The position numbers and the translations under genes are program-made. Below the pieces are notes generated by a model. It made no database searches. It saw only the letters and a list, made by a program, of their open reading frames with translations, and was not told the origin of the DNA. DNA of 46,821 nucleotides from the NCBI GenBank assembly GCA_023663225.1, contig JAMPHU010000021.1, forward strand, positions 1-46,821. Direction: 5' to 3'. Shown one piece after another: positions 95 through 35,164 of the stretch (position 1 is the first letter of the stretch; each line of letters opens with the position of its first letter). The DNA comes from Candidatus Gastranaerophilales bacterium. Lineage in GTDB: Bacteria; Bacillota; Clostridia; Lachnospirales; Lachnospiraceae.

Positions 95-2161
95 CTACTC
101 CTTTTCCCGAATTTTCAACGAAAAATCGCTGCGATCCAAGGAGAAGTTGGGATTGTAATAAGGGTCTCCCTGCTCCAGCACTTTTTTCCACTTTTCCCTG
201 AACTTTGCCGACTCCCGCTCATAACGCTCCGCCTTCTCACCGACATCATCCAGTCCCCTTGAGGCGGACTCATAGTGAAACAACTCCGCAAAGGGCGTAA
301 ATACATTGAGCAGTCCCCGCTCTCTGAGTTTTAAACAAAAATCCACATCGTTCAGCGAGACGACAAAGCCTTCGTCCAGGCCTCCCACCTCCTCGTACAG
401 ACTCTTTTTCACCAACAGACAGGCCCCCGTTACCGCGGAGACATCCTGCGCATAACACAGGCGTCCCATATAACCCAGATTCTGCCTGTGCTGTTTATAA
501 TGGGAATGTCCCGCCGTGCGGTGCGCCCCCAGACCGATCACCACGCCCGCATGCTGGATCGTCTTGTCGGCATAGTAAAGCTTGGCTCCCACAGCGCCCA
601 CATCCTCCCGCTGGGCATACATGAGAAGCTCTTCCATCCAGTTGACGGTGATCACCTCTGTGTCATTGTTCAAAAGCAGAATATAATCCCCCTTCGCGTA
701 AGACACGCCCAGATTATTCACCGCAGAATAGTTAAACTCCCCTTGATAAGTCACGATGGCAACCCTTGCGCCTGCCGCGCGGCCATCGCAGACCTGACTC
801 TCGCCGCTGTAGCAGATCCCGCCGTCTGTGCCGCCTTTTGTCTTAGCTCCCGGGTAGGGATAACCCATCAGTTCCGTGTAATACGCCTTGATCTCCTCCG
901 TGCTGCTGTTGTTCTCCACGATCAAAATTTCATAATTGTCATAAGTGGATTTTCCCAAGATGGAAGTCACACATCTGCGCAAGTCCTGCACATGGTCTCT
1001 ATTTGCAATAACAATCGTTATCATCGGATTTCCGATGATCTCATAGCGGATGCGAAAGATCGTCTCAAACGCCCTGGTGCTGATGATCTGAAAGTGTTCA
1101 TAACCATGTTTCTTCAAATGCTCCGCCACCGCTCTCTTGGCCGCCTGGATGGCGTAAGGCTTAGCCTCGATCCCTGCGGCGGTGCTGCCCGCATGGCTTC
1201 TCCAATAATACATCAGTTTGGGAACATGCACGATCTTTTTGGCATTGTCCGTCAGCCGCAGGATCATGTCATGGTCTTGACTTCCGTCGAACTTTGGCCG
1301 AAACAGCTCGTTCCCCTCTAAGATTTCTCGGGAAAACACGCTGAAATGGCAGATATAATTGTTGGCCCGCAGATTATCCGGTGCATAGTCCGGTTTGAAG
1401 TGCATGGTCAGCATTTTGTTGATATCGCCGCTGCGAAAGGTGGTCTCATCGCAGTAAAGGTAATCCGCCCCCTGTTCATTGATCGCCTTCACATACTCAT
1501 AAAGGACGGACGGATGCAGGATATCGTCCTGATCGAAAAGTCCGATGTACTCTCCGGTGGCAAGCTTTAAGCACTCGTTGGTGTTGCCCGCTATCCCGCC
1601 GTTTTTCTCCAGCTTTTTGTAAACGATCCTTCCGTCCGCCCTGGCCGCATACTCCCTGCAAATTTCCCCGATATATCCGTGCGCCTCGTCGGAACCGTCC
1701 GCCAGGCACAACTCCCAATTCGTATAAGTCTGATTCATAACCGAATCCAGCATCTCTATTTGAAACTCTCTGGCATTATTCCAAAGAGGCACCAAAATGC
1801 TGATCTTCACCATTCTGGGGAACACCGCCGCCCGCTCTGCAGCCGCCCGCTCTGAGCCGGGAAAACTGTCCGTGCCAAACTGCCGCATAGCCTGTCTTTC
1901 CCGCTTTTTGTATCCCAGCTTGTGGATCACCCCCCTGACGCCCCCGCAGTTGGCCAGTCTGTCTTTTTGCCGGATTGCCCAGTGGATCCCTGTTCGAAGG
2001 GGTTTGCTCGCCTTCCAGAGCGGATTGTTCTTGATGCGCCCCAGCTTCCAGCTAAGCTCCTCGTTCTGCGCCTCCAGATCCGCAATCCGAGCGGCCAGAT
2101 CGGCGCTCTTTAAATGCTCTTTCTCATATGCCTCCTTATAATCCATCTCCTGCTCGATCAT
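95..2161 (-). CDS. Tandem GT2 glycosyltransferase with N-terminal coiled coil
   Basis: A 688-residue cytoplasmic or membrane-associated glycosyltransferase that probably extends or decorates the polysaccharide exported by the neighbouring ABC transporter. Residues about 1-50 are a charged, heptad-like helix followed by a basic linker (NNPLWKASKPLRT), a lead-in common in clostridial polysaccharide GTs. A first GT-A domain starts near residue 118 (ISILVPLWNN), has an FDQDD metal-binding motif and then an HFKPDYAPD segment. A second GT-A domain starts near 378 (ITIVIANRDH) and has LLLNNDTEV and NDVDFCLKLRE. The two-domain layout resembles rhamnan-type GT2 enzymes, but donor and linkage cannot be read from sequence. 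It is the last gene of the block A operon; the following 94 bases to the window edge show no clear terminator. The start codon is uncertain because no strong ribosome site sits at the usual distance. Confidence 0.88.
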   Translation of the reverse strand: MIEQEMDYKEAYEKEHLKSADLAARIADLEAQNEELSWKLGRIKNNPLWKASKPLRTGIHWAIRQKDRLANCGGVRGVIHKLGYKKRERQAMRQFGTDSFPGSERAAAERAAVFPRMVKISILVPLWNNAREFQIEMLDSVMNQTYTNWELCLADGSDEAHGYIGEICREYAARADGRIVYKKLEKNGGIAGNTNECLKLATGEYIGLFDQDDILHPSVLYEYVKAINEQGADYLYCDETTFRSGDINKMLTMHFKPDYAPDNLRANNYICHFSVFSREILEGNELFRPKFDGSQDHDMILRLTDNAKKIVHVPKLMYYWRSHAGSTAAGIEAKPYAIQAAKRAVAEHLKKHGYEHFQIISTRAFETIFRIRYEIIGNPMITIVIANRDHVQDLRRCVTSILGKSTYDNYEILIVENNSSTEEIKAYYTELMGYPYPGAKTKGGTDGGICYSGESQVCDGRAAGARVAIVTYQGEFNYSAVNNLGVSYAKGDYILLLNNDTEVITVNWMEELLMYAQREDVGAVGAKLYYADKTIQHAGVVIGLGAHRTAGHSHYKQHRQNLGYMGRLCYAQDVSAVTGACLLVKKSLYEEVGGLDEGFVVSLNDVDFCLKLRERGLLNVFTPFAELFHYESASRGLDDVGEKAERYERESAKFREKWKKVLEQGDPYYNPNFSLDRSDFSLKIREKE

Positions 2162-2209
2162 GTATCTACCATACCTTTCCGTCCTGTTTGCCGCCCCGCC
2201 CGACGTCTT

Positions 2210-4231
2210 TCACACTTCCAGAAACCGCTCGCTGAAGTTCATCAGCTTCAAACCCGACACTTTGCTGTACGCTGCCAGACCGATCCGATAACGGCCGGGG
2301 TCTATATTTTCCCCCGTGAGCCGAATGTGGAAGCCGCACAGTCCCACATTGACTTGATCCGGCATATTCTCCTCCAAATCCGGACGATACTGCCCTATCA
2401 GAGAGACTTCATAAGTCCTTTCTTCCGATTGGCGCAACAATAACTTATATTCATAACATGCGTTATTATCCCCCAAAACCACGCCGTATCCCTGTACGAT
2501 CCCATTCCTGCTCTGCTCCACCCGCAGCAGCAGGCAGTTGTCCGGACGCAGACGCTTTTGATCACACTCCTCCAGTCGGCCCACAACCTCCTGTAGAACA
2601 TTTCCCTCGGTCTCCCAGGCAGGGCGGATGCGGACATCCAACCCCTCCCGTCCCATTCCCTCCGAATAATAAGGGTCTGTTCCCTCAAGATTTGGATGTC
2701 TCTTATACAGAATATCCCGCTCCGCCAAGAGTCTGTTTAGTTTCTCAAAAGATTCGTCATCCCCTCTGCTCAGAGATTCATGGTGATACGCATAGCAGTC
2801 GTTCATACATACATTGTGATATCCCAACTCATAGAGCGCAAAACCCAGATCCACATCATTGAAAGCAACCCGGAGTTCCTCGGCAAATCCTCCCGCTCTG
2901 TGAAATTTTTCCCTCTCTATCATCAGACAGGCCGCCGTCACCGCCAACACATTGCGCCTGCCGCGGTTCGCGTTATAATAATAACATTTGTTATCATCTA
3001 AAAACTGTAGTTTGTGCACAGGCCCCATCGGCAGATTGGTGATTCCGGCGTGCTGAATCTTTTGTGTGTCCGGATAGAAAAGCTTCAGGCCCACCGCTCC
3101 GGTATATTCCCTGTCCGCCAGCGCCGCCATCCGCAGGATGCACTCCGGCTCGCACAACTCCACGTCATCGTTCAAAAACAACAGAAAATTTCCCTGCGCC
3201 TTGGCCGCCCCCAGATTGCACATACGGGAAAAATGAAATTCCATGGGCCGATACAGATAGCGTATAGTCCACCACGCATCCTCCATCTCCTTTGTCAAAT
3301 TTTCGATCCGCCTTTTGTTCTCCTCGCTGCTCCCGTTGTCCACAATCAAAATCTCGCAGGGCAGTCCCTTTGTACCCGCAGCCTTGCATCCCCTCAGACA
3401 GGCTTCCAGAATATCCGCATGATCCTTAGAAGGGATAATGACGGACACTACAGGAGAAACTTCCCCTGGCATTGGCTTCTTATCCTCCAAAAGACAATAT
3501 CCGTCACGAAATTCCCTGAACACAGCTTCCGCGCGCTGCTCTGACAGTGCCGTGCGCTCCAAAAATTTTTCCTGTTCCCTCCTGTGATCGCTGTGAAACA
3601 GAATTTGCCTGATATGTCCCACAGACTTTCGCCCCGTTATATAAGCTCCCGACAATTCCGCACAATGATGCAGCCATCTCTCATATTGCGTCCACGCATC
3701 CGCACCCCGGACCACACGGTATACTCTGCCGCCTTCCTCTTTGGCGGCAGATAGCTCTTCCATCCAGTCGAGATTTGCGCCCTGTCCGCCGGTCTCTTCC
3801 CACAGTGAGCGGACGCGATCCCACAACTCTCTCCTGAGCGCCACCACGCTGCCAAAATAGAGAAAGCTGTCCAACAGATCCGGAGACCAATCGGGTTTAA
3901 ACCAGGGATCACGCCTCTCCTGTCCCACAGGCCACACATCCTCGTCGCCATAAGCCATCTGACAGTGCGGATTCTCTGCAAAATATCGACGGAAGCTCTC
4001 TCTGGCCCCTTGGGCCCAGCTGCCCTTGGAAGAGATCACATACACCAGCCCTTCCCGCGCGTTCTGCACCGGTTCAGAAGCGGATTCCTGCAAAGAAACC
4101 CACTCTGGTGTAAACTCCTTGTGCGCTGCGATCCATCTGTCATAGGAACCCTTTTTGTCCGCCAATCTTTTCACATACTGCCTGTTCTGTTGTTTGATCA
4201 GAAATTCCTTGGCCAGACTACGAATACTCAT
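2210..4231 (-). CDS. GT2 glycosyltransferase with degenerate first domain and C-terminal beta domain
   Basis: A 673-residue relative of the downstream tandem GT2 protein. The second catalytic domain is clear: VVSVIIPSKDHAD, EILIVDNGSS, LLFLNDDVE as the DxD-type motif, and VAFNDVDLGFAL. The first domain keeps only its distal half (YGDEDVWP, WFKPDWSPDLLDS). The nucleotide-binding opening (normally SIIIPTYN-like) is replaced by an unrelated-looking stretch, so this half is probably structural rather than catalytic. Residues about 545-673 form a predicted beta-rich tail with alternating hydrophobic residues and a DLEENMPDQVNVGLCGFH segment, possibly for glycan binding. The gene is 37 bases downstream of the methyltransferase gene and 48 bases upstream of the next GT2 gene, consistent with one operon. 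Acceptor and donor sugars are unknown. Confidence 0.85.
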   Translation of the reverse strand: MSIRSLAKEFLIKQQNRQYVKRLADKKGSYDRWIAAHKEFTPEWVSLQESASEPVQNAREGLVYVISSKGSWAQGARESFRRYFAENPHCQMAYGDEDVWPVGQERRDPWFKPDWSPDLLDSFLYFGSVVALRRELWDRVRSLWEETGGQGANLDWMEELSAAKEEGGRVYRVVRGADAWTQYERWLHHCAELSGAYITGRKSVGHIRQILFHSDHRREQEKFLERTALSEQRAEAVFREFRDGYCLLEDKKPMPGEVSPVVSVIIPSKDHADILEACLRGCKAAGTKGLPCEILIVDNGSSEENKRRIENLTKEMEDAWWTIRYLYRPMEFHFSRMCNLGAAKAQGNFLLFLNDDVELCEPECILRMAALADREYTGAVGLKLFYPDTQKIQHAGITNLPMGPVHKLQFLDDNKCYYYNANRGRRNVLAVTAACLMIEREKFHRAGGFAEELRVAFNDVDLGFALYELGYHNVCMNDCYAYHHESLSRGDDESFEKLNRLLAERDILYKRHPNLEGTDPYYSEGMGREGLDVRIRPAWETEGNVLQEVVGRLEECDQKRLRPDNCLLLRVEQSRNGIVQGYGVVLGDNNACYEYKLLLRQSEERTYEVSLIGQYRPDLEENMPDQVNVGLCGFHIRLTGENIDPGRYRIGLAAYSKVSGLKLMNFSERFLEV

Positions 4232-4268: not shown

Positions 4269-6368
4269 TCAAAATTTCCTGCCCTTTACAGCCCCCGCAA
4301 TATCCTGCGCCATCTCCAAGGGCAGTCTTGCGATATCCATGCTGACGCACAGAACATTCGCCCCTTCCCGTTCCAATTCCTCCAGCGCAATTTCGATATT
4401 GGGATCCTGGGTTGGAAAAAGGATGCTTGGCTGATAGACTTCTCCCTTCTTTCGGGAAGGTTTCGTCGCCTTGCCGTTCACGTTCAACACCCCCCGCTTT
4501 TCCAGCGGCACGCGCTCACCGTTGAAGATCATCTCTTTTATCTTCACCATACAGGCATCCATAGCCGGATCGATGCGCAGCCTTCTCACATCTCCGCTCA
4601 CGGCCAGATGCAGCTCGATCGCCTCTTCTCCCTGATAGGCGTCCTCCACAAAATAAGATTCCTCCTCGCGAAAACCGCTCCCCTTATCCTCATAGATCTG
4701 CACTCTGTTTACTTTCTCGTGATCTTGAAATTTGTCGATCCATTTCTGCGGTTCCAACAGGCGATTGCCGATCAGGTTCCGTATCTGTGCCATGGACAGA
4801 TGAGATCCTGTGACAAAGCTCTGAAAATCCCGCTCCTGCTCCCGATAGTTTTCCGCATCCGCCTCCGTGATCTGAAGCTCCTTTAAAATCCTGTCCAGAT
4901 CCAGCTTTTCCCGCTTCTCATCCTCCAGCAGATAACAGTAGATCGCGCGAAATGCAAGTTCCTTCGTGTCAATGGGTTTCCCAAATGTCCACTCATAGTC
5001 AATCAGAGTCCATTTGTCCCCCCGCACCAGCAGATTGGCAAAGATCAGGTCAAAATCCGCCACAGGACATTCGTCGTTATAGCCGATCCGCTCAACATAC
5101 TCGCGAAAATAGCTATGAAACCCGTCCAGATCCCCTTTCTCCAGACATGCGTCCATCAACTCCGACAAAGGCGTTCCCTTCACAAACTCAAACTCCGCAT
5201 AGAGTCCTTCCTCCTCATGTTCCACCAGTCTGCATCTGTTGACCTCCAAACTGCTGTCACGGTATTTTTCCCGCAGATTCCGGTATGCCACCTCCATCTG
5301 CCGCACATGGTCATGGGCCGCCTCTGTGAGCGGATATTTCCGCACCTGCTGCATACTTTTACCCATCCCGTGTATCTGTGTGCGGATGGCATATTCCGGC
5401 GCTCTATCGTTGGAGTACTTGACATACTTAATATCGCAGTCTCCTCCCAGTATCACCAAAAAGGAATTGGAAAAAAGAGGAAACAATCCGTCGCCAATCA
5501 CGCCGTCAAAGGCGCTCTTCTCGTCAAACAACAGCATCCTGTCCCTGTCAAAATTGCGCAGATTGTTGGACAACTCTCCCTTGCCCGGCTGACGGGCGTC
5601 GCTGTACAGAGTGGTCATAAACTTATAGTCGGGATAAGGATAATAAAAATGATATTCTCTTGCGCCGGCCCGTTTGAATACCGCTTCCAGTCCCTTCCTG
5701 CTGAAAGTGCGCACACCGCCGCCGTCCGGATAATTCTCAATACCGCTGAAATAGCTGCCCAGGTGATCCTCCCTACAACCCGCAAAATACTTCATTCCAT
5801 ATTTATTCTCAATCGCGATCACGATCCTGCCGTCTTTTCCCAGATGCCTGCGCAAAATCTCCAAAAATTCCTCATAGGGCCGCTCTCCTCCGATGTAGGT
5901 CTGCGCGTACTCGAATACGCCGATCAGACAGATCACATCATAGTCCGCGGGCAGCTTGGGTTCGATATCCTTAAAATTTCCCACATGGATCGTCACATTG
6001 TCACATTCACTGTGTCTGTGGGCATTGATCAGGCTGCGTTTCTTGGAAAGTTCCACACAGGTGACGCTCCCCGCCTTCCTGGAGAGCGCTCCCGTGACGG
6101 CGCCGCATCCGCTGCCCACTTCCAGCACTTTCTGATCCTTCCCCATGGGAATCCAATCCACGATATTTTCCCGCAGCGCGGACAGATGATAGAGCACCGG
6201 CCAGCTTTTCTTCTCCTCTATCGCCTTCGCATACTCCACGATCGACAGATTCTTCGCCATATCAAGCAGCTCGTCCTCCACCGCTCCGTCACAATACAGA
6301 TCCTCGCCCGGATATTCGCTGTAGTCCAAAGTCACTTTGCCAATATGCTCCATCTGTTCCATCCGCAT
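4269..6368 (-). CDS. SAM methyltransferase fused to kinase-like domain (candidate glycan chain terminator)
   Basis: 699 residues. The N-terminal class I methyltransferase is shown by the SAM-binding motif VLEVGSGCGAV at residues 81-91, the acidic residue in CVELSKKR near 106, and IVIAIENKYGMKYF near 182-195. The middle region (about 310-490) has an APH/choline-kinase-like core: a hinge-like FEFVKGTPLSEL near 394, a catalytic loop D440-LIFA-N445, and LIDYEW with D457 in the metal-binding position. The last 200 residues are helical then beta-rich and not recognised. The methyltransferase-then-kinase order is that of WbdD, the enzyme that caps and terminates E. coli O9a O-antigen. The gene sits directly beside an ATPase with a Wzt-type sugar-recognition tail, which supports a capping role by inference. 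The kinase could be inactive or act on a different substrate. The start may be the third codon (6362), which gives better spacing to AGGA. Confidence 0.82.
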   Translation of the reverse strand: MRMEQMEHIGKVTLDYSEYPGEDLYCDGAVEDELLDMAKNLSIVEYAKAIEEKKSWPVLYHLSALRENIVDWIPMGKDQKVLEVGSGCGAVTGALSRKAGSVTCVELSKKRSLINAHRHSECDNVTIHVGNFKDIEPKLPADYDVICLIGVFEYAQTYIGGERPYEEFLEILRRHLGKDGRIVIAIENKYGMKYFAGCREDHLGSYFSGIENYPDGGGVRTFSRKGLEAVFKRAGAREYHFYYPYPDYKFMTTLYSDARQPGKGELSNNLRNFDRDRMLLFDEKSAFDGVIGDGLFPLFSNSFLVILGGDCDIKYVKYSNDRAPEYAIRTQIHGMGKSMQQVRKYPLTEAAHDHVRQMEVAYRNLREKYRDSSLEVNRCRLVEHEEEGLYAEFEFVKGTPLSELMDACLEKGDLDGFHSYFREYVERIGYNDECPVADFDLIFANLLVRGDKWTLIDYEWTFGKPIDTKELAFRAIYCYLLEDEKREKLDLDRILKELQITEADAENYREQERDFQSFVTGSHLSMAQIRNLIGNRLLEPQKWIDKFQDHEKVNRVQIYEDKGSGFREEESYFVEDAYQGEEAIELHLAVSGDVRRLRIDPAMDACMVKIKEMIFNGERVPLEKRGVLNVNGKATKPSRKKGEVYQPSILFPTQDPNIEIALEELEREGANVLCVSMDIARLPLEMAQDIAGAVKGRKF

Positions 6369-6394
6369 CTTCCTCTCTTTTCTTCTTGACCGCT

Positions 6395-7696
6395 TTACTC
6401 CTGCGCATCCTGCACCGAGACCTCGGAATCCATATCATAATATCCCACCGTATCTTTGTCCGACACCACTGTAATGCTCATCACATCATACAGTCTATGA
6501 TACACCTCAAAGACATCCCCGTTGTATCCGGTGACCCCCAGCGAAAGCAGATATTCGCCTCCCTGTAAGCTCATCTTCTGGGTAAATGTCACATCCTTCG
6601 TCTGTCCGGCCTCCGCCGGATCCAAAAACGACTTCTCGATCATAGAGTTGGTGCCGGTGATCTCCGTCCCGTGCGCATCCTTGATGGAAAAGGCAAAGAT
6701 CGGCGCCGGAATCCATTCCTTGATGTGTACCCTCATGTGGAGCGTGAAAACGCTTCCCTTGATGACGGCACTGGTGTGTACGCCTTTTTCATCTGTCAGA
6801 AAAAATTCCGTGATCTGTGCCTGTCCGGTGCCGTATTCCAAATGTTCCGATCGCTGCACTCCTGCTGCCTGAGGCACAGCCGCCCGCCTCAACGTCTCGT
6901 CATTCAACATCTGCTGATGCTCCTGCCTGTCGGGAATCTCGTACTGTCCTACCAGCACGCGCTTGAACGCGTCGATCATCTCCTTGGGGCCGCCCTCCCC
7001 CAAAAGCTTACCCTGATTCAATAAAAATACCCGATCACAATATTTGCTGATACTGCTCAGATCGTGACTGACAAACACAATGGTCTTACCCATTTTTTTA
7101 AATTCTTCAAACTTATGATAACACTTTGCCTGAAAAAATACATCTCCCACCGACAACGCCTCGTCCACAATCAGGATCTCAGGGTCGATATTGATCGCCA
7201 CAGCAAACGCCAGACGCACAAACATCCCGCTGGAATAGGTTTTTACCGGTTGTTTCACATAGTTGCCGATATCCGCAAACTCCAGGATAGCCGGCAGCTT
7301 TTCGTCAATCTCTTTCTGGGAAAATCCCATCATCGTGCCGTTCAGATATACATTTTCAATACCGCTGTACTCCATATTGAATCCGGCTCCCAGCTCCAGA
7401 AGGGCAGAAATCCGCCCATCCACTGTCACTTCACCTTCCGTAGGATTTAACACGCCGGTGATGATCTTTAAGATCGTTGACTTGCCGGAGCCATTGGTGC
7501 CGATAATACCAACGGTCTCTCCCTTATAGATATCGAGGCTGATACCGTCCAGCGCGTGATGAAGCTTATACTTTTGCTTTCTGCCAAGGCCGAAAGCTTC
7601 CTTCAGCCTGTCCTTGGGATTGTCATACAGTTTGTAGATTTTTCGCACATTCTTTACCCTGATGGCCACATCCCGCTTTTCCTGCATATCTTCCAT
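6395..7696 (-). CDS. ABC transporter ATPase, Wzt/TagH type, with C-terminal carbohydrate-binding domain
   Basis: A 433-residue ATPase for export of an undecaprenyl-linked polysaccharide across the membrane, partner of the permease at 9226-10215. It has Walker A GTNGSGKST, a signature region YSSGMFVRLAFAVA, Walker B ILIVDEALSVGD and the H-loop FVSHD. DEALSVGD is typical of the polysaccharide/teichoic acid export subfamily. Residues about 285-433 are an added beta-sandwich (YGTGQAQITEFFLTDEKG, IKDAHGTEITGTNS, LQGGEYLLSLGV) that matches the Wzt C-terminal domain pattern. In characterised systems that domain recognises the modified end of the glycan. The permease is two genes upstream, separated by a polytopic membrane protein. 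Substrate chemistry is not readable, but the adjacent methyltransferase-kinase suggests a capped chain. Confidence 0.93.
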   Translation of the reverse strand: MEDMQEKRDVAIRVKNVRKIYKLYDNPKDRLKEAFGLGRKQKYKLHHALDGISLDIYKGETVGIIGTNGSGKSTILKIITGVLNPTEGEVTVDGRISALLELGAGFNMEYSGIENVYLNGTMMGFSQKEIDEKLPAILEFADIGNYVKQPVKTYSSGMFVRLAFAVAINIDPEILIVDEALSVGDVFFQAKCYHKFEEFKKMGKTIVFVSHDLSSISKYCDRVFLLNQGKLLGEGGPKEMIDAFKRVLVGQYEIPDRQEHQQMLNDETLRRAAVPQAAGVQRSEHLEYGTGQAQITEFFLTDEKGVHTSAVIKGSVFTLHMRVHIKEWIPAPIFAFSIKDAHGTEITGTNSMIEKSFLDPAEAGQTKDVTFTQKMSLQGGEYLLSLGVTGYNGDVFEVYHRLYDVMSITVVSDKDTVGYYDMDSEVSVQDAQE

Positions 7697-7705
7697 AATA
7701 AACTC

Positions 7706-9208
7706 TCATTCTTTCACAATCACCGTATTTTTGTCATACCATTCGGCTACAGCACGATTTTCCTCTCTGTCAGGATCATCCGTCAGATCTCCCATACACA
7801 AAAACCACGGCTTAAAATGGTACGGTTCCAACACCACATCTTTCTCGTCGCTCTTTAAAATCTCCACACGCGCCATATACTCATGATAAAAATTGTACGC
7901 TTCCCCTGTATGCACATAATAGTAAGCGCCGTAGGAAGAGACACTGCCCGCCTGGTTGGATGACAGAGAGAAGATGACCAACATACAGACAATTACCGCC
8001 CCGTAATACCACCAGGGCGCCCCTTCCGGACAGTTGATGTGTCCGCCGCGCCGCTCTAACATGCGCCGCGCCCATCCGATCCAATATATTTCATTCAGGA
8101 TCAACAAAATCTGGTAAGTGATCTTAACTGCGTTGAGCGATCTGCTGAGTCCCGCATGCCCCAGCGAATAAAGGCTTGGTGTAAACCCTGTCGCATACAG
8201 GCAAAAAGCTCCGACCAACACAAGAAGCGGAAATCGAAACGAAAACTTGCTTTTGCCAACGGCCTGCCATATGATCGGAAATAGCAGGAGCAGAAACGCC
8301 AGTGTCATCCACCCCGTAAACTCCCACAAGTGCCGAAAAGCTTCCAAAAAAGAGCGCAGCACCGCCCAAAACGGAGAATACCCCCATCCCTCATAGGAGC
8401 GTGCTCTCACCTGATTGCCGGGCGCACTTACATTCATATAAAAAGATACCGCGTACACCGCTAACGCCGGCAAATACCGAATGCCTCTCCCCCTGCGCGT
8501 CCACAATACCGCCACTGTCAGACCAAAGAGCACGACCAATCCCTGAAGGGCCGTGACAAAATTGCTGCCCGCGGTCAAGAGCGCCCCCGCCAGACTGGCC
8601 AGTAAAAGTAAGATCCCTTTCACGCTTTTTAACTCCGTATGATACAAACGGCACAGCGCCGCCACAAAGAGCATAAAAAAGGAATGCATTCCCACATAAT
8701 GTACGCCGCCATTATACCAGTAAAATCCTGCCTGTGCGGTATAAATCAACTCCACCACCATGATCGTTACGATCCCCTGTATCGCCAGTCTGGAATACCG
8801 ATCCAGGCCAAAGACATCCCTGGTCAACACACTGGTCAACACAAACACCGACACGGTCAGAATGAGAATCAAAAATACCGGCCCCAAAAAATAGTATTGT
8901 TCTCCCCAGATCGCAGGCATCATCATCATAAAAAAGATGGAAGAAAACGTTCCCTGCCAGGCATACCATTCCACTCGTATTCCTTCCAAAGTGCCTTTCA
9001 GCGCTCCGACTATACCGGGTGCCATCTCCATGCCCGCTCTGGCAAATTTTCCATAATTCCAGTCGTCATACCATGGCACTGCATACATCGCCAGACGCAG
9101 CAAAGGTATCAGCGCCAGCAACATTGCAGCCGCCATACCAAGAGCGATCAGACCCACAGAGGGTTTCCAGAACAAAATCTTGTTCCATCTATTGTTATCG
9201 GTTTTCAT
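7706..9208 (-). CDS. Polytopic membrane protein, GT-C-like (DUF6056-like)
   Basis: About 500 residues with roughly a dozen hydrophobic segments and little else. After the first membrane helix comes an extracytoplasmic acidic motif, VPWYDDWNYG, in the position where GT-C glycosyltransferases carry their catalytic DD/DE pair. The overall look recalls the DUF6056 family; this is from memory and needs a profile search. It probably transfers a sugar from a polyprenyl-phosphate donor outside the membrane, but this is inference. The chosen ATG at 9208 follows GGGAGGAAGGGAAG. An alternative ATG at 9229 overlaps the permease stop codon as ATGA. The gene lies between permease and ATPase, so its product should act on the exported glycan. 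Confidence 0.75.
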   Translation of the reverse strand: MKTDNNRWNKILFWKPSVGLIALGMAAAMLLALIPLLRLAMYAVPWYDDWNYGKFARAGMEMAPGIVGALKGTLEGIRVEWYAWQGTFSSIFFMMMMPAIWGEQYYFLGPVFLILILTVSVFVLTSVLTRDVFGLDRYSRLAIQGIVTIMVVELIYTAQAGFYWYNGGVHYVGMHSFFMLFVAALCRLYHTELKSVKGILLLLASLAGALLTAGSNFVTALQGLVVLFGLTVAVLWTRRGRGIRYLPALAVYAVSFYMNVSAPGNQVRARSYEGWGYSPFWAVLRSFLEAFRHLWEFTGWMTLAFLLLLFPIIWQAVGKSKFSFRFPLLVLVGAFCLYATGFTPSLYSLGHAGLSRSLNAVKITYQILLILNEIYWIGWARRMLERRGGHINCPEGAPWWYYGAVIVCMLVIFSLSSNQAGSVSSYGAYYYVHTGEAYNFYHEYMARVEILKSDEKDVVLEPYHFKPWFLCMGDLTDDPDREENRAVAEWYDKNTVIVKE

Positions 9209-9225
9209 AACTTCCCTTCCTCCCG

Positions 9226-10215
9226 TCATAACACATCCGCAAAATGAACCTTCAGACGCTTAAAGACCAGCGCGCCCAAACCAAACAGCACCACTGTTGC
9301 AATCCAAAAGTACATAGTAGAGAAAAAGTCTCCAAAAAACCATTCCTGCTCATAGATCGCGCTCCGATACCCGTTCACGATATACACCATGGGATTCAAT
9401 TTCAACAAGGTCACGATCCAGCTGCCCTCCAAAGAATTGATATCCCACAAAATAGGGGTCGCCCACATTCCAATCTGCAGAACGATATTGATGATCTGCG
9501 ACAGATCCCGAAAGAACACCACTACTGCGCAGGTCGTATAACTGAGCGCCAACACAAAGATAAACAGGCATACGCTGTAATAAATCAACTGCAGCATATA
9601 AATATTGGGATAATAACCGTACACTGCGGCCACGATCAACAGCACGCACACAAAAAATAAATGGATAAAGGTGGCGGCCACGATCTTGATGATCGGCAGG
9701 ATGCTGATCTTGAATACCACCTTTTTTACCAGATAATTGTACTCTAAAAGAGCGTTGGTCCCCCCGTTGAGCGCCTCGTTAAAATAAAACCAGGGCACCA
9801 GTCCCGCCGTCAAAAACAGCACAAACGGAACCTCCGTGTCGCCCCTGACGGTGGGACCAGAACTTCCAAATATCCTGTCAAACACAATATAATACATGGC
9901 TACTGTCACCACCGGCTGCGCCAGTGCCCACACAGCTCCCATATAAGAGCCCGCATAACGCTTTTTAAAATCGTTTTTGGCCAGCTTCCAGATCAGATGT
10001 CTATTTTGGTACAGTTCCATCGGAAGAACAGTAATCTTGTCATACAATTTCACAAATATCACACAGGCGAGCGTGATCACTACACAGGAGAGGATCTTCT
10101 TGAGCAATTCCTCATCCGGCTCCGCACCGGGATTGTCATGCAGAATAATGATTGCCGCCATCACGACCGCCACTGATATAAAAATTGCGATTCCGATTTT
10201 TTTGTCTTTTCTCAT
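9226..10215 (-). CDS. ABC-2 type polysaccharide/teichoic acid export permease (Wzm/TagG-like)
   Basis: A 329-residue membrane subunit that would pair with the Wzt-type ATPase to export a lipid-linked glycan. The ABC-2 core begins near residue 75 with LIWKLAKNDFKKRYAGSYMG, an amphipathic entry segment typical of the family. It continues with LGAVWA-like, FLTAGLVPWFYF and LNPMVYIVNGYRSAIY motifs and six hydrophobic segments. Unusually, two further hydrophobic segments (about residues 8-24 and 42-60) precede the core, making it about 65 residues longer than typical Wzm/TagG proteins. The gene lies 21 bases after a GH25 gene and overlaps or abuts the next membrane-protein gene, so it belongs to the operon. 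Confidence 0.9.
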   Translation of the reverse strand: MRKDKKIGIAIFISVAVVMAAIIILHDNPGAEPDEELLKKILSCVVITLACVIFVKLYDKITVLPMELYQNRHLIWKLAKNDFKKRYAGSYMGAVWALAQPVVTVAMYYIVFDRIFGSSGPTVRGDTEVPFVLFLTAGLVPWFYFNEALNGGTNALLEYNYLVKKVVFKISILPIIKIVAATFIHLFFVCVLLIVAAVYGYYPNIYMLQLIYYSVCLFIFVLALSYTTCAVVVFFRDLSQIINIVLQIGMWATPILWDINSLEGSWIVTLLKLNPMVYIVNGYRSAIYEQEWFFGDFFSTMYFWIATVVLFGLGALVFKRLKVHFADVL

Positions 10216-10236: not shown

Positions 10237-11502
10237 CTATTCATAGCGGATATTCAGATCCACATTTCCACTGATACCGTTGATCTTACCCTTGGAGGTA
10301 TACTGCCACATCCTATAATAGCCCTGATACAGCGGGACATCTCTATACTCTGCCAGCCATATAAAGTATCTGTCCAGCCTGCTCATATCCAGATTGTTAT
10401 TGTACCAGTTACGACTAGCGTAGATACCGGCCGTGTATCCCGCATTTTCGATCGTGCGACAGAAAGCCTCGCAGACCAAAGTTCTGGTCTCCGGATCCAG
10501 ACCATCCGCGCGGCCATTACCGCCCGCGCCTTCCGTATCGATAAAAATGGGATAATTCAATTCGTGTTCCCGCACCAGCGCCAACACCACGGAAGCCTCC
10601 TCCACAGCCTCCACCTCATTGGTGGCCTGGGTGAAAAAGTAGACGCCCACGGCAACTCCAGAATTTTTGGCCCCTCGTATGTTGACAAGAAAATAGGGAT
10701 CTTCCACCAGACTGCCCGTCACAGAACCGCGGTAGCCTGCACGGATAATGGCAAATTCCACACCCGCGTTTTTCACCTTGTCCCAATCGATATCTCCATT
10801 CCACTTGGACACATCTATCCCTAGCGTCGCTTTGCCAGTGACGCTCTGCAGTCCTTTGATCTCCGTCCGGTCCGCGTCGGAGCGCGCCTCTTGCACACTG
10901 GTATCCTCCGCCTCAGCATCCACCTCATCTTCCGTTTTGATCAGCAGAGAAATGTCATCTATTGCCAAATACTCCACCTTGTCCTTCACTCTCACCCTGG
11001 TGGCATCCGTAGGCACACGATAACCAGCAATCGGCATCAGGGACGCAAAATACTCCCCCGCGTCCAGATCGGCTATATATATGATGCCATCCTGATCCAG
11101 ATCCTTATACTCTCCCAAGTCTTCCAGTTTTACAAAGAAGCTTTCGCCCTCCACCGGTTCGCCCTTCGTGTCCACAATCTGAATACGCAGATCCTTTTCC
11201 ACGGAAGTTATGATCATGGAAAGACGGTTATGCTGATCCTTGGCTGCCTCCAAAACGGGATTGACTTCTTTGTCAAAAAAACTCTCATCCTGCAGAAACG
11301 CGGACAGATCATCCCCGATCTGACCGTTTTGTCTCTGCGGCTGCAAACTTTCCTCAACGCTTTCTGTCTGCACTTCCTGCTCTTGCGTTCTGCCGTCATC
11401 TTCCGCCATCTTCTCACGGTTGACGTAACACACCAGCAAAGCGACCAGCGTTACCGCCACGATAGAACCCATTACTGTCAGACGTCGCAGCTTTGCGTCC
11501 AT
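10237..11502 (-). CDS. Membrane-anchored GH25 muramidase
   Basis: 421 residues. A signal-anchor helix (residues about 7-26) is followed by an acidic, Gln-rich linker, a small beta domain with DLDQDGIIYIADLDAGEY near residue 135, and a C-terminal GH25 domain. The expected catalytic residues are present: D230 in GIDVSKWNG, and D322 and E324 in FIDTEG. GH25 enzymes cleave the beta-1,4 bond between MurNAc and GlcNAc in peptidoglycan. Its place inside the export operon suggests local wall remodelling for passage or attachment of the polysaccharide (inference). The start at 11502 is set by GGAGAG seven bases upstream. It is a shorter paralogue of the 961-residue enzyme upstream, without the wall-binding repeats or the Thr/Pro-rich stalk. 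Confidence 0.92.
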   Translation of the reverse strand: MDAKLRRLTVMGSIVAVTLVALLVCYVNREKMAEDDGRTQEQEVQTESVEESLQPQRQNGQIGDDLSAFLQDESFFDKEVNPVLEAAKDQHNRLSMIITSVEKDLRIQIVDTKGEPVEGESFFVKLEDLGEYKDLDQDGIIYIADLDAGEYFASLMPIAGYRVPTDATRVRVKDKVEYLAIDDISLLIKTEDEVDAEAEDTSVQEARSDADRTEIKGLQSVTGKATLGIDVSKWNGDIDWDKVKNAGVEFAIIRAGYRGSVTGSLVEDPYFLVNIRGAKNSGVAVGVYFFTQATNEVEAVEEASVVLALVREHELNYPIFIDTEGAGGNGRADGLDPETRTLVCEAFCRTIENAGYTAGIYASRNWYNNNLDMSRLDRYFIWLAEYRDVPLYQGYYRMWQYTSKGKINGISGNVDLNIRYE

Positions 11503-11538
11503 ATACACTCTCTCCTTTAATCTGACAAATGGGGCCGC

Positions 11539-11586: not shown

Positions 11587-12672
11587 TTATCTATTCTCAT
11601 ACATCTCTGTATAATATTTTTGATAGTCGCCGCTGGTGGCATGCTCCATCCACTCCTCGTGCTCGAAGTACCAGGCGATGGTCTTACGAATACCGTCCTT
11701 GAACATGGTCTCCGGATACCAGCCAATCTCCGCCTTGATCTTGTCCGGCGCGATCGCATATCTGCGGTCGTGTCCCTTGCGATCCTCTACATAGCTGATC
11801 AGATCTTTGGTCACAAATGCTTTTCTGGGATCCCCCTCCGGCAGCATCTCCTGCAGAGTCTCTAAGATGATATGAATGATCTCGATATTCTGCTTTTCGT
11901 TGTGTCCACCGATATTGTAAGTCTCAAACAGCCTTCCCTGTTCCTGCACCATATCAATCGCCTTGGCGTGATCCTCCACGTACAGCCAATCCCTGACATT
12001 CTTGCCGTCGCCGTACACGGGAAGCTTGATCCCATGCAGCGCATTGTTGATAAACAGCGGAATCACCTTCTCTGGAAACTGATACGGCCCGTAATTATTG
12101 GAGCAATTCGTGATATTGGCTGGGAAACGATAAGTGTCCATATAGGCCTTCACAAGCATGTCCGAGCTGGCTTTGCTGGCAGAATAAGGACTGTGCGGAT
12201 CATAGGGCGTCGTCTCATAGAAAAAGGCATTGTCGTCCTCCGGCAGAGATCCGTAAACCTCGTCCGTGGAGACGTGCAGAAACTTTTTCCCTTCCTTGAA
12301 ACTGCCGTCAGGCAGCTCCCAGGCAGCCTTGGCGCAGTTGAGCATCACCGCCGTCCCGAGCACATTGGTCTTTACAAAGACCTCCGGATTGACAATACTT
12401 CTGTCCACATGGCTCTCCGCCGCGAAATGCACGACTCTGTCAATGTCGTTCTCAACAAAGATCTTCTCGATGGCCTCCTTGTCACAGATATCCGCCTTGA
12501 TAAAGGTATAATTACCGCGGTTCTCCACATCCTTGAGATTCTCCAGATTCCCCGCGTAGGTCAAAGCATCCACATTGATAATGCGGATCTCGTCACCGTA
12601 TTTGCCAAACATATAATGAATATAGTTGGAACCAATAAAACCGGCTCCCCCTGTCACCAAGTAAGTACGCAT
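11587..12672 (-). CDS. rfbB: dTDP-glucose 4,6-dehydratase
   Basis: 361 residues, full length. It converts dTDP-D-glucose to dTDP-4-keto-6-deoxy-D-glucose in the cytoplasm, the branch point for dTDP-rhamnose and dTDP-amino sugars. The Rossmann glycine motif is at the N terminus (TGGAGFIGSNY). HFAAESHVDRSI, the STDEVYGSL serine/acid region and the catalytic YSASKASSD tyrosine-lysine pair are present, with NNYGPYQFPEKVIPLFI later. The start is ATG at 12672 behind GGGAGAGG. rfbA, rfbC and rfbD are absent from the window. A WecE/RffA-type aminotransferase at 21882 could use the product, so the sugar made here may be dTDP-Fuc4N rather than rhamnose. An extended -10 promoter sits just upstream, which may give this gene and those below it extra expression. 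Confidence 0.96.
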   Translation of the reverse strand: MRTYLVTGGAGFIGSNYIHYMFGKYGDEIRIINVDALTYAGNLENLKDVENRGNYTFIKADICDKEAIEKIFVENDIDRVVHFAAESHVDRSIVNPEVFVKTNVLGTAVMLNCAKAAWELPDGSFKEGKKFLHVSTDEVYGSLPEDDNAFFYETTPYDPHSPYSASKASSDMLVKAYMDTYRFPANITNCSNNYGPYQFPEKVIPLFINNALHGIKLPVYGDGKNVRDWLYVEDHAKAIDMVQEQGRLFETYNIGGHNEKQNIEIIHIILETLQEMLPEGDPRKAFVTKDLISYVEDRKGHDRRYAIAPDKIKAEIGWYPETMFKDGIRKTIAWYFEHEEWMEHATSGDYQKYYTEMYENR

Positions 12673-12702
12673 AATACCTCTCCCGTCTGTCATATCTTAT
12701 TC

Positions 12703-12756: not shown

Positions 12757-15642
12757 TCAATACCCAAGATAACTGATATTCATATCCACGTTGCCACTTA
12801 TGCCGCTGACTCTGCCGGTAGACCGATACTGCCACAGATCGTATCTTCCCGTATAGGTGGGGGTATCTGCATATTGAGCCAGCCAAATCTTGTACGCTCC
12901 CAGCGCGCTGGCATCCATTTTGCTGGTCAGCCAGGTCTTGTTCGCATATATGCCGGCCGTATATCCGCCATTGCGGATGGTCTCACAGAAAGTCTTGCAG
13001 ACAGCCGTTCTGGTAGCGCTGTCAATTTTGTCGCCCCGTCCGCCACTGCTCTCCACATCGAGAAATACAGGGTAAGAGATCCGATAGCCGGCGATCTGTC
13101 CCAAAACCATGGAAGCCTCTTCCACTGCCTCCACTTCATTGACTGCCTGGGTGAAGAAATAAACTCCAACTTTTAAATCCGCCGCCATAGCGCCCTTAAT
13201 GTTGGTGACAAACTTGGGATCCTCTATCAGCGCTCCCTGGGAAGAACCTCTGTACCCACAGCGAATGATCACATAGGATACTCCTGAATTTTTGACCGCA
13301 TTCCAGTCGATGGTGCCATTCCATTTGGAGACGTCGATGCCCATCGTGCCGGAACCCGTCACCAGAGAGCCGTCGCTCGCAAAATTGTACCTCGCGCCCT
13401 GGATCACCTGTTCCCCGGTCACCTTGTCTCCGGAGGCCGTAAAATAATATACTTTATTGTCAATGGTCTGCCAGCCGGTATATCTCGTGCCTTCTGCCTT
13501 GAAAAATTTGTCGCTCGTATAATAATCTGCGTAGTAAGCTTCTCGGTAGCTGTCTCCCTCCTGCACAAAGAGCGGATTCCCCGCGGAATCTTTTAACCGG
13601 TTGGTCTTGTCATACTTTGGATGATTCTTGACCACAACCGCACAGGTCGCCTCTTTCTTCATGTCGTTCTGCTCATAGCTGACAGTAATGGTTGCACTCC
13701 CTGCCGCCACACCGGTAACAGTGACATTCATTCCGCTGACGGATACCGTTGCCACTCCGGTGTCGGAAGACACCGCGCTGATGGCCACATTGGTGTTGCC
13801 TTCAATCTTTGCCGTAAGTGCACCTGCCTCTGTCATATAGACAGTCAGAGAAGTCTTATCCAAGGTGATCGGTGCAATCTCCTTCGGAACGGTCGGGGTT
13901 GTAGGGGTTGTAGGCGTAGTAGGATTCGTAGGCGTACTAGGCTCCGCCGGTGTAGAGGGGTTCGTCGGTGTACTAGGGTCCGCCGGTGTGCTAGGATCCG
14001 TCGGCGTACTAGGATCCGTCGATGTGCTAGGATCCGTCGGCGTACTAGGGTCCGTCGATGTGCTAGGATCCGTCGATGTGCTAGGATCCGTCGGCGTACT
14101 AGGGTCCGTCGATGTGCTAGGATCCGTCGGCGTACTAGGGTCTGTCGATGTGCTAGGATCCGTCGATGTAGTCGGTTCCTGTGTTTCGCTCTGCTCTTCG
14201 CCGGCAACCGAACCGTTTGACTCTGCTATGCGCACAAAACTGCCACCTCTGGCAAGCGTCATCGGATCGGGTACAGAACTCTTCGCCACCTCTGTGTAAA
14301 GCACAGTTCCTTTGTTGGACTCCACAAATTCCACCGTGTCAGTCAAAGCGGATTCCACCACCGTCTCATTCTTCTTGGTATCCTCCACCGCTGCGTTGAT
14401 CTCAGACTCTTTTTTGACCTCGTTTGCGACATCCACCTTCTGATAAGCGATCTCCTTCTTTACTTCCACAGACTTCGCGCTGGTGGGAAGGATGTAACTG
14501 GCGTATTTTTCATCTGTCAGCGTATTCAATGCCACTTTGTAAGTGCCGGGCGTAAGATCTTTCTGATAGATGATGCCGTCCATGTCATCATCCGTCCAAG
14601 TGTATGTCTTGCCATTCGGATCAGTCACCGTCACTGAGAAAGGCACATTTGCAATCAATCTGCCACCATCTGTATTGGTAAACTTAATCTTCAGATCCTT
14701 CAATACAGATACCATATTAAGGGATACCGTAACCTGCTTATTGTACGCTGCCTCATTGTATTCTGGACGCTGCTGCGCTTCCTCGTTCTCTATGACCACG
14801 TTGGCTGCCGCCAGTCTCGCCATCTGCGCGTCCGCCATAGCCAAAAGGCCCTGCTCTCCGATCAGAGTAATCCCATCCAACTGACTGCCAACGCTGATAA
14901 ACTCATCCATCCGCCTGTCAATCACAGATGCGGATGCATACACGCTCCCCGTCACAAGGGCAAGTACCAGCACCGCCACACCCGTACAGGTGATCACGCG
15001 ATCCATCGGCCCCATGTCAAGGAATTTCTGCCAGATCGACGCAAACACATTTTTCTTCTCCTCGGGATACGCTTCCTCTGTGTAGTAAGACTCTTCCTCA
15101 TATTCCTCGGACTCCTCGGCATATTCTTCCTCAAGGTACTCGCCGGACTCCTCGTCTGCAATACCTTCCTCCGCATATTCCGGCTCTCCTTCGTACACCT
15201 CCTCGGACTCCTCGACATATTTTTCCTCAAGATACTCGCCGTCTTCGTATACGATACTTTCCTCATTATATTCCGGCTCTCTCTCATACCCTTCGGACTC
15301 CTCGACATATTCTTCCTCAAGGTACTCGCCGTCTTCGTATACGATGTCTTCCTCATCGTATTCCGGCTCTTCCTCGTACACGATGCCGGACTCCTCGTAT
15401 TCCGGCTCTCCCTCGAATACGACGCCTTCCTCATCGTATTCCGGCTCTTCCTCGTACACGATGTCCTCCTCGTATTCCGACTCTCCCTCGAATACGATGC
15501 CGGACTCCTCGTATTCCGGCTCCTCCGCATACTCTTCGGACTCTTCTGACTCTTCTATATCTTCAAATTCTTCAGCATCCAACTCTTCATAATCTTCCCA
15601 TTGTTCCGATGTTTTTCTGCCACGTCCGAATAATTGTCTCAT
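12757..15642 (-). CDS. Large surface GH25 muramidase with acidic cytoplasmic repeats, Thr/Pro stalk and wall-binding repeats
   Basis: 961 residues. Residues about 15-205 are a Glu/Tyr-rich repeat region (units such as EPEYDEE and YEDGEYLEEEY). A basic patch and one membrane helix (about 216-238) follow, so the acidic part should be cytoplasmic and the rest outside. The exterior part holds a helical linker, a beta domain with DDDMDGIIYQKDLTPGTY, and a stalk of about 14 six-residue units of the TDPSTP/TDPSTS kind. It then has a Big_2-like immunoglobulin domain (ITLDKTSLTVYMTEAG), cell-wall-binding-like repeats (TGWQTIDNKVYYF) and a GH25 domain with D770, D862 and E864. It should cleave peptidoglycan glycan strands. 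It heads the export operon and has a clear sigma-A promoter and an AAAGGAG ribosome site. The cytoplasmic acidic repeats are unusual for a muramidase and may bind a partner or metal. Confidence 0.92.
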   Translation of the reverse strand: MRQLFGRGRKTSEQWEDYEELDAEEFEDIEESEESEEYAEEPEYEESGIVFEGESEYEEDIVYEEEPEYDEEGVVFEGEPEYEESGIVYEEEPEYDEEDIVYEDGEYLEEEYVEESEGYEREPEYNEESIVYEDGEYLEEKYVEESEEVYEGEPEYAEEGIADEESGEYLEEEYAEESEEYEEESYYTEEAYPEEKKNVFASIWQKFLDMGPMDRVITCTGVAVLVLALVTGSVYASASVIDRRMDEFISVGSQLDGITLIGEQGLLAMADAQMARLAAANVVIENEEAQQRPEYNEAAYNKQVTVSLNMVSVLKDLKIKFTNTDGGRLIANVPFSVTVTDPNGKTYTWTDDDMDGIIYQKDLTPGTYKVALNTLTDEKYASYILPTSAKSVEVKKEIAYQKVDVANEVKKESEINAAVEDTKKNETVVESALTDTVEFVESNKGTVLYTEVAKSSVPDPMTLARGGSFVRIAESNGSVAGEEQSETQEPTTSTDPSTSTDPSTPTDPSTSTDPSTPTDPSTSTDPSTSTDPSTPTDPSTSTDPSTPTDPSTPADPSTPTNPSTPAEPSTPTNPTTPTTPTTPTVPKEIAPITLDKTSLTVYMTEAGALTAKIEGNTNVAISAVSSDTGVATVSVSGMNVTVTGVAAGSATITVSYEQNDMKKEATCAVVVKNHPKYDKTNRLKDSAGNPLFVQEGDSYREAYYADYYTSDKFFKAEGTRYTGWQTIDNKVYYFTASGDKVTGEQVIQGARYNFASDGSLVTGSGTMGIDVSKWNGTIDWNAVKNSGVSYVIIRCGYRGSSQGALIEDPKFVTNIKGAMAADLKVGVYFFTQAVNEVEAVEEASMVLGQIAGYRISYPVFLDVESSGGRGDKIDSATRTAVCKTFCETIRNGGYTAGIYANKTWLTSKMDASALGAYKIWLAQYADTPTYTGRYDLWQYRSTGRVSGISGNVDMNISYLGY
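13890..14177 (-). repeat. 18-bp tandem repeats encoding a Thr/Pro/Ser/Asp stalk
   Basis: About 14 copies of an 18-base unit coding for TDPST followed by S or P, with the 3' copies drifting to ADPSTP, TNPSTP and TTPTTP. The units closest to the membrane side are nearly identical at the DNA level, so copy number may vary between strains by slippage. Confidence 0.9.
15090..15545 (-). repeat. Degenerate repeats encoding Glu/Tyr-rich cytoplasmic segment
   Basis: Imperfect repeats of about 45-100 bases code for alternating EPEYDEE-, GIVYEEE- and EDGEYLEEEY-like units. They differ mainly by synonymous and conservative changes, indicating internal duplication under selection for acidity. Confidence 0.75.
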
Positions 15643-29324: not shown

Positions 29325-29353
29325 AACAGCCTCCCGTCTCCGCCATACAGACA

Positions 29354-32121: not shown

Positions 32122-32131
32122 GAAAACTCCT

Positions 32132-35090: not shown

Positions 35091-35115
35091 ATCCATCTCC
35101 TCTGCTATATAGCCT

Positions 35116-35144: not shown

Positions 35145-35164
35145 GGTTGGCTTTTTATTTTGCA

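What the first reader, a model, noticed from the sequence alone, without database searches (positions are those of the whole stretch)
4269..7696. WbdD-like methyltransferase-kinase beside a Wzt with sugar-binding tail: capped-chain export in a Gram-positive
The 699-residue protein has a SAM methyltransferase (VLEVGSGCGAV, 81-91) followed by an APH-like kinase core (D440, N445, D457). The next gene upstream encodes a Wzt ATPase with an extra C-terminal beta-sandwich. In E. coli O9a, WbdD (methyltransferase plus kinase) caps the growing chain and the Wzt tail recognises the cap. The same pairing in a clostridial wall-glycan operon suggests length control by terminal methyl-phosphate or similar capping, which I do not know to be described in this group. 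Unlike WbdD, the C-terminal 200 residues are not an obvious long coiled coil, so any molecular ruler would differ.
Basis: partly seen in the sequence, partly recalled or inferred. Interest (0 to 1): 0.78.

Follow-up and report, generated by a model that had tools for sequence, protein, structure and literature searches.

The report
Phosphate-methyl chain-capping enzyme in gut bacteria
A gut bacterium carries an enzyme predicted to cap the end of a surface sugar chain with a methylated phosphate, beside an exporter whose sugar-reading tail looks built to recognise that cap, a length-control scheme so far shown in Gram-negative bacteria.

Summary
The 699-aa protein (4269-6368, minus strand) has a SAM methyltransferase (VLEVGSGCGAV, 81-91), then a kinase core (K344, D440, N445, D457, invariant in the window and 56 homologues). 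Its neighbour is a Wzt with a Wzt_C tail. Capped-chain export is well supported; descent from WbdD is not: WbdD aligns only over the SAM core. Full-length alignment is to a Pseudomonas protein whose residue numbering and gene order match Klebsiella pneumoniae O7 ORF6, a tested methyltransferase-kinase terminator (PMC11231755). ORF6 carries a coiled coil and two GT2 modules; here these sit on a separate gene (95-2161), whose close homologues start with a predicted coil in 58 of 58. Relatives fuse the parts. In 200 genomes of the family, 96 of 99 with the enzyme encode Wzt_C, 93 within 8 kb. At the Aquifex cap-contact tryptophan column, enzyme-linked Wzts have Arg, as has E. coli O9 (methyl-phosphate cap); the methyl-cap Wzts of Aquifex and E. 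coli O8 have Trp. No fold prediction could be run. Known mechanism, new split-module variant.

The parts
4269..6368 (-). Methyltransferase-kinase (699 aa), predicted chain terminator
   Evidence: ORF; full-length homologues; hhalign to the P. asturiensis KpO7-type protein, E 7.7e-48
6096..6128 (-). SAM-binding motif I VLEVGSGCGAV, residues 81-91
   Evidence: Sequence; Pfam methyltransferase models start at residue 81 or 82; E83, G85, G87 counts
4779..5477 (-). Kinase domain, residues 298-530 (K344 at 5337-5339, D440 at 5049-5051, N445 at 5034-5036, D457 at 4998-5000)
   Evidence: A3 profile matches protein kinases in the PDB; the four residues are invariant in the 57 rows of A1
4299..4736 (-). 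C-terminal domain, residues 545-690; aligns with a region of the P. asturiensis protein that corresponds to the Ig-like CBM modelled in KpO7 ORF6
   Evidence: hhalign covers it against P. asturiensis; no PDB match better than E 0.72; the CBM label is the paper's
6395..7696 (-). Wzt ATPase with C-terminal carbohydrate-binding domain (433 aa)
   Evidence: Pfam ABC_tran and Wzt_C; best PDB matches 8dku and 7k2t, 7K2T being A. aeolicus WzmWzt per PMC9445017; 36% to E. coli O9 Wzt
6431..6844 (-). Wzt_C domain, with R401 (6494-6496) at the A. aeolicus Trp362 cap-contact column
   Evidence: role of Trp362 from PMC9445017
9226..10215 (-). Wzm permease
   Evidence: Pfam ABC2_membrane
7706..9229 (-). 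DUF6056 membrane protein between Wzm and Wzt; function unknown
   Evidence: Pfam; a homologue in 32 of 80 named loci, some of them short contigs
2210..4231 (-). GT2 glycosyltransferase (673 aa)
   Evidence: Pfam; nearest downstream window-gene homologue in 58 of 80 named loci
95..2161 (-). Two-module GT2 glycosyltransferase (688 aa) with DXDD and NXD motifs, predicted polymerase
   Evidence: Pfam; motifs; matches the C-terminal half of fused relatives
2024..2155 (-). Predicted coiled coil, residues 3-46 of the two-module transferase, followed by NPLWKASKPLR
   Evidence: COILS-type score with a recalled matrix, WbdD as positive control; 58 of 58 close homologues
11587..12693 (-). dTDP-glucose 4,6-dehydratase (RmlB-like)
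   Evidence: Pfam GDP_Man_Dehyd and Epimerase, RmlB name inferred; an RmlD over the curated cut-off lies elsewhere in the genome

Best explanation
The operon makes a lipid-linked glycan, probably rhamnose-containing, by an ABC-transporter pathway with capping. The glycosyltransferases at 95-4231 extend the chain. The 699-aa enzyme then phosphorylates the terminal sugar with its kinase and methylates that phosphate, which stops growth. The arginine-bearing Wzt tail binds the anionic cap, and Wzm/Wzt exports only finished chains. The enzyme is a relative of K. pneumoniae O7 ORF6-N, not of WbdD. The ORF6 parts are divided here: methyltransferase, kinase and tail domain in one protein; coiled coil and two GT2 modules in another, so the length ruler, if there is one, needs the two proteins to bind. 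Shown here: domain homology, conserved catalytic residues, operon and genome co-occurrence, fusions in relatives, the Wzt Arg/Trp pattern. Inferred: the product, the acceptor sugar, the order of reactions, the ruler, the complex and export control.
For: hhalign of A1 (57 rows) to a P. asturiensis 1457-aa protein: probability 100, E 7.7e-48, covering methyltransferase, kinase and tail; to a C. braakii protein: probability 100 over methyltransferase and kinase. The P. asturiensis gene follows wzm and wzt. Its residues located by matching motifs are Y28, Y66, G91, G93, E112 and Y158, the numbers reported for KpO7 ORF6, and D443 against D441; the window has the same seven residue types in order (Y25, Y60, G85, G87, E106, Y154, D440; PMC11231755). 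ORF6 phosphorylates and methylates a rhamnose terminus in vitro, and D441A gave no conversion (same paper). Kinase profile matches solved protein kinases at the catalytic loop. Wzt is the nearest same-strand window-gene homologue upstream in 78 of 80 named loci. In 200 family genomes 96 of 99 positives carry Wzt_C; 93 of 101 strong-class Wzt_C hits lie within 8 kb of the enzyme, against 0 of 35 weak-class hits. Wzt pocket column Arg in 78 of 78, 17 of 19 and 12 of 12 linked sets, against 1 of 20 weak-class Wzts fetched. The E. coli O8 control was Trp. The kinase shares a chain with clear GT domains in 17 of the 20 loci fetched, most of them for being divergent or fused.
Against: KpO7 ORF6 itself was not held; the link runs through P. 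asturiensis. The tail domain has no PDB match. One linked locus (L148) has a tail-less Wzt of 258 aa, and L147 has His in the pocket column. Three enzyme-positive genomes lack Wzt_C over its cut-off, and 8 of 8 strong-class Wzts not near the enzyme also have Arg, so Arg follows the Wzt class, not linkage alone. No coil was predicted after the kinase in L149, L151, L160, L162, L164 or P. asturiensis. My DXDD pattern did not find that motif in P. asturiensis. The coil here is about 44 residues, against 45 plus 40 in WbdD, and its length varies little (34-51), so it may only make an oligomer. No glycan structure is known.
Confidence: 0.76

Rival explanations
1. A true WbdD orthologue with the same eukaryotic-type kinase and C-terminal coiled-coil ruler.
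For: Same two activities in the same order and a Wzt neighbour in both; the A3 profile matches eukaryotic protein kinases.
Against: hhalign to WbdD stops after 84 columns of SAM core, probability 37; BLASTP finds only chance-level pieces, best E 0.11; a C-terminal coil in 0 of 81; WbdD is not among the 60 PDB rows shown of 195 and of 189, the rest unseen.
Confidence: 0.05
2. The cap is something other than methyl-phosphate: phosphate alone, methyl alone (as proposed for Geobacillus WsaE), or another phosphoryl group, with one domain acting as scaffold.
For: Methylation by KpO7 ORF6 was incomplete in vitro (PMC11231755). Some relatives have lost methyltransferase motif I while keeping kinase residues. 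C. braakii has Glu in place of the kinase D457.
Against: In the window both sets of catalytic residues are intact and conserved, and the Wzt pocket has the arginine of the methyl-phosphate transporter rather than the tryptophan of methyl-cap transporters.
Confidence: 0.14
3. The enzyme modifies chains internally or acts on another substrate (lipid carrier, small molecule or protein) and does not terminate chains.
For: No acceptor is known; the kinase is remote from tested sugar kinases; PADLOC's mad2 model matches all 57 members of A1 (in the window at residues 53-249).
Against: Tight operon with Wzm, Wzt and GT2 genes, fusion to GT domains in relatives, and pairing with one Wzt_C class.
Confidence: 0.05

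Closest known systems
Klebsiella pneumoniae O7 ORF6 (N-terminal methyltransferase-kinase), PMC11231755
   Same: Methyltransferase, then a kinase that domain databases miss, then a tail domain; seven named residues in order with the same types; cluster with wzm/wzt; GT2 modules with DXDD and NXD motifs (window)
   Different: ORF6 is one chain (its GT modules end at residue 1414) with its own coiled coil; here coil and GT modules are on a separate gene. Host inferred Gram-positive, without LPS
E. coli O9/O9a WbdD
   Same: Predicted reaction (methyl-phosphate cap) and predicted partnership with a Wzt tail
   Different: No detectable homology outside the SAM core; no C-terminal coiled coil
Geobacillus stearothermophilus WsaE (S-layer rhamnan), PMC2943079
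   Same: Gram-positive, Wzm/Wzt export, methyltransferase with two GT modules, termination by capping proposed
   Different: 2-O-methyl cap, no kinase mentioned in the passages seen; sequence not held, so not compared
Aquifex aeolicus Wzm/Wzt, PMC9445017
   Same: Full-length Wzt with cap-binding tail; best PDB match
   Different: Methyl cap, Trp362 in the pocket; the window has Arg401

Membership tests
KpO7 ORF6-N type methyltransferase-kinase terminator | End-to-end homology through methyltransferase, kinase and tail domain | tested here: met
   hhalign to the P. asturiensis KpO7-type protein over 632 columns, E 7.7e-48; KpO7 ORF6 itself not held, link by residue register and gene order
KpO7 ORF6-N type methyltransferase-kinase terminator | SAM residues Y28, Y66, G91, G93, E112, Y158 and catalytic D441 | tested here: met
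   Window Y25, Y60, G85, G87, E106, Y154, D440; position 106 is D in 42 of the 57 rows of A1
KpO7 ORF6-N type methyltransferase-kinase terminator | Coiled coil between terminator and GT modules | tested here: inconclusive
   Not in this protein; on the separate GT protein in 58 of 58 close homologues; after the kinase in 14 of 19 divergent loci tested; P. asturiensis itself scored negative with the 28-residue window
KpO7 ORF6-N type methyltransferase-kinase terminator | Phosphorylates then methylates the chain end | not testable with these tools
   Needs enzyme assay or NMR
KpO7 ORF6-N type methyltransferase-kinase terminator | AmiN/APH-like kinase fold | tested here: inconclusive
WbdD | Homologous kinase domain | tested here: not met
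   No alignment outside the SAM core; a fold comparison could not be run
WbdD | C-terminal coiled-coil ruler in the same chain | tested here: not met
   0 of 81; WbdD control positive at 473-517 and 556-595
Wzt with cap-binding tail | ABC ATPase fused to Wzt_C | tested here: met
   133.2 bits over a cut-off of 30.4
Wzt with cap-binding tail | Tail binds the cap and is needed for export | not testable with these tools
   Arg401 at a cap-contact column is indirect
Geobacillus WsaE | Sequence relation of the methyltransferase | not tested
   I did not have its sequence

The most novel reading that the evidence does not exclude
Lachnospiraceae, a common gut family, control the length and export of a wall or surface glycan by methyl-phosphate capping with a terminator and ruler divided over two interacting proteins. 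The residue at the Wzt Trp362/Arg401 column acts as a readable code for the cap: Arg for phosphate-containing caps, Trp for methyl-only caps. One subset has lost methyltransferase motif I and would cap with phosphate alone.
Probability: 0.4. Interest if true: 0.7.

Novelty: new variant of a known kind. Interest (0 to 1): 0.55.

Why it matters
It would carry a chain-capping strategy worked out on Gram-negative O antigens into a common family of gut Gram-positives, where I found no description of surface glycan length control in the papers listed. It names residues to mutate in enzyme and exporter and a cultured host (Acetatifactor muris DSM 23669, locus L095). It also offers a sequence rule for guessing cap chemistry from Wzt alone.

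Tried and rejected
WbdD orthology: rejected. Pfam, NCBIfam and PADLOC for the kinase: no useful hit. PDB search with the tail domain: only ADP-sugar pyrophosphatases, E 0.72 or worse. A coiled-coil tail on the enzyme: none. A defence role from the mad2 match: not pursued, since in the window only the methyltransferase region matches and the operon is for glycan assembly. R. gnavus glucorhamnan as a known product: from the listing I picked no paper to read. Pairwise alignment of Wzt tails to the window alone put Asp, next to the Trp, at the O8 pocket column; the multiple alignment puts Trp there, and pairwise alignment of O8 to Aquifex pairs Trp with Trp. For the 20 weak-class Wzts the pairwise method is unstable (8 gaps, 2 Arg). 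The motif [HDNQ]R.Y[DNE], chosen after seeing the alignment, is absent from all 20 and present in 116 of 118 linked or strong-class Wzts including the window.
Full report
What is there. On the minus strand the operon reads, from upstream to downstream, RmlB-like (11587-12693), GH25 (10237-11508), Wzm (9226-10215), DUF6056 (7706-9229), Wzt (6395-7696), the 699-aa enzyme (4269-6368), GT2 (2210-4231) and a two-module GT2 protein (95-2161), with gaps of -4 to 78 bases. The closest named records are Acetatifactor and other Lachnospiraceae, from which I take the family.

The enzyme. Pfam sees only a methyltransferase. In the window and 56 full-length homologues (39-77% identity to it) K344, D440, N445, D457, E459 and W460 are invariant. 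In an alignment of the window with 16 others, 12 of them more distant and two of these from Proteobacteria, D440, N445, E459 and W460 are invariant in 17 of 17, D457 is kept in 16 and K344 in 14. A kinase-only profile (48 sequences) matches 189 distinct PDB sequences at E up to 0.1; the 60 shown are protein kinases, best E 6.4e-5, with D440xxxxN445 on the HRDLxxxN loop in the two alignments printed. No structure prediction was possible.

Which family. Against E. coli O9 WbdD (strain HS, locus L140) the profile aligns only at the SAM core, 84 columns, probability 37. Against a 1457-aa protein on a Pseudomonas asturiensis plasmid, found by tblastn (2 of 72,556 plasmid records matched), it aligns over 632 columns with probability 100; against the other hit, from Citrobacter braakii, over 465 columns, methyltransferase and kinase. 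The P. asturiensis gene lies directly after wzm and wzt and ends in GT2 modules. K. pneumoniae O7 ORF6, as described in PMC11231755 (abstract and sections 8, 10, 11 and 13 seen, of sections 11 and 13 the first of two parts), has this order: methyltransferase, an unannotated kinase, an Ig-like domain, a coiled coil, two GT2 modules. The six SAM-binding residues named there fall at identical numbers in P. asturiensis, and the catalytic Asp is 443 against 441. The window protein has all seven residue types in order. ORF6 was shown to phosphorylate and partly methylate a rhamnose terminus, and D441A gave no conversion (same paper). The paper lists orthologues from alpha- and gammaproteobacteria and cyanobacteria, and homologues in a methanogen; the word Gram-positive does not occur in its text (count 0).

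Divided modules. I fetched 20 loci, most of them for being divergent or fused. In 9 (L148, L149, L154-L159, L162), methyltransferase, kinase and a clear GT domain form one chain; a tenth (L147) is a 1260-aa chain with GT matches below the Pfam cut-off only. In 8 (L150-L153, L160, L161, L163, L166) the methyltransferase is separate and the kinase is fused to GT domains. In 2 (L164, L165) no GT domain was found on the kinase chain. Rhamnan synthesis protein F domains occur on the fused chains of L148 and L161. In the window's own group the enzyme stands alone. The two-module GT homologues over 55% identical to the window's, 58 in the 80 named loci, have a predicted N-terminal coiled coil of 34-51 residues in 58 of 58, and within their first 160 residues a W[KR].[STCA] motif in 58 of 58, like the SRSWRMTK at the end of WbdD's coil. 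Of 19 divergent loci tested, 14 have a coil after the kinase or tail; L149, L151, L160, L162 and L164 do not, and L159 was not tested. The coil matrix was recalled; WbdD served as positive control.

The exporter. The nearest same-strand homologue of a window gene upstream of the enzyme is Wzt in 78 of 80 named loci; one has DUF6056 and one is cut by the contig end. Downstream it is GT2 (58), the two-module GT (11), none (9) or the contig end (2). Over the same 200 genomes of the family, the enzyme (E up to 1e-15; some matches cover only one domain) is found in 99 and Wzt_C over its cut-off in 118 (weaker hits were left out). Both occur in 96; 3 have the enzyme only, 22 Wzt_C only, 79 neither (Fisher p 4e-31, which ignores relatedness). 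Wzt_C hits fall into a strong class (E 4e-35 or better, 101 hits, 93 within 8 kb of the enzyme) and a weak class (35 hits over the cut-off, none within 8 kb). Outside the family the kinase is rare: 13 of 245 class-level genomes match the kinase profile, 8 of them in the same family.

A cap code. In A. aeolicus Wzt, Trp362 lids the pocket for a 3-O-methyl cap and W362L essentially abolishes LPS binding (PMC9445017, passages seen; the residue is 363 in the PDB chain numbering, an offset I inferred). The aligned residue is Arg in the window (R401), in 78 of 78 Wzts recovered from the 80 named loci, in 17 of 19 from the divergent loci (one His, L147; one tail-less, L148; none recovered from L166), in 12 of 12 further linked and 8 of 8 not-near strong-class Wzts, in P. 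asturiensis, C. braakii and E. coli O9. It is Arg in 1 of the 20 weak-class Wzts fetched of 35, the others being Tyr 9, Phe 5, Trp 3, Ser 2. I then read E. coli O8 Wzt (strain IAI1, annotated O8 family). Its WbdD has no kinase domain per PMC3482155, and that its cap is a methyl group is recalled. It has Trp. The pairwise caveats are in Tried and rejected. Few transporters with known caps stand behind this rule.

Known and new. Capping by methyl-phosphate and its reading by a Wzt tail are established in Gram-negatives (PMC3482155, passages; PMC11231755). In Gram-positives a methyl cap linked to WsaE, with predicted Wzt recognition, is described for Geobacillus (PMC2943079, passages). In nine searches of the held library (listings seen) I saw no account of a methyltransferase-kinase terminator in Clostridia. 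The library lacks most subscription papers, among them the E. coli O9a Wzt study.

Verdict. A new, widespread, split-module variant of a known terminator kind; the mechanism is inferred by homology and genome context and awaits chemistry.

Noticed in passing
L154, L155, L156, L158, L198-L204, L206, L207: Of 150 methyltransferase match rows (some genomes fetched twice), 15 depart from E/D-x-G-x-G in motif I; L208 is merely not covered there and L035 has one change. Ten of the 15 have Gln for Glu, and only L035 keeps the EDH motif. Their Wzts are of the Arg class where recovered, and the fused ones aligned keep the kinase residues. They may cap with phosphate alone or use the domain as a scaffold.
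   Followed up: partly
window 27557-33220: NeuB with SAF domain, a cytidylyltransferase, GT2, an ABC exporter and a GT52/polysialyltransferase-like protein: a sialic- or legionaminic-type sugar cluster upstream of the operon.
   Followed up: no
window 4269-6368: The PADLOC model mad2 matches residues 53-249 at E 6e-21, and all 57 members of A1; the two methyltransferases may share descent.
   Followed up: no
L148:1807-2583: A linked Wzt without the sugar-binding tail (258 aa) near a fused methyltransferase-kinase chain, an exception to the pairing.
   Followed up: partly
L148:3828-7955 and L161:6157-9039: The kinase and coil share a chain with Rhamnan synthesis protein F domains, a hint that the polymer contains rhamnose.
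   Followed up: no
L146:9944-11890: The Citrobacter braakii plasmid homologue has Glu in place of the metal-binding D457, so its kinase may be altered.
   Followed up: no
window 7706-9229, 17655-18725, 33300-35165: Three proteins of the uncharacterised families DUF6056, DUF6077 and DUF6044 in one glycan region; candidate lipid-linked sugar transferases, by guess.
   Followed up: no
window 10237-11508 and 12757-15642: Two GH25 proteins flank the RmlB-like gene next to the exporter, one with choline-binding-type repeats; homologues of all three occur in 50 of 80 named loci, some of them short contigs.
   Followed up: partly
L073: A record titled Muribaculum sp. carries the Lachnospiraceae operon (enzyme 71%, 70%), probably a mislabelled MAG.
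   Followed up: no
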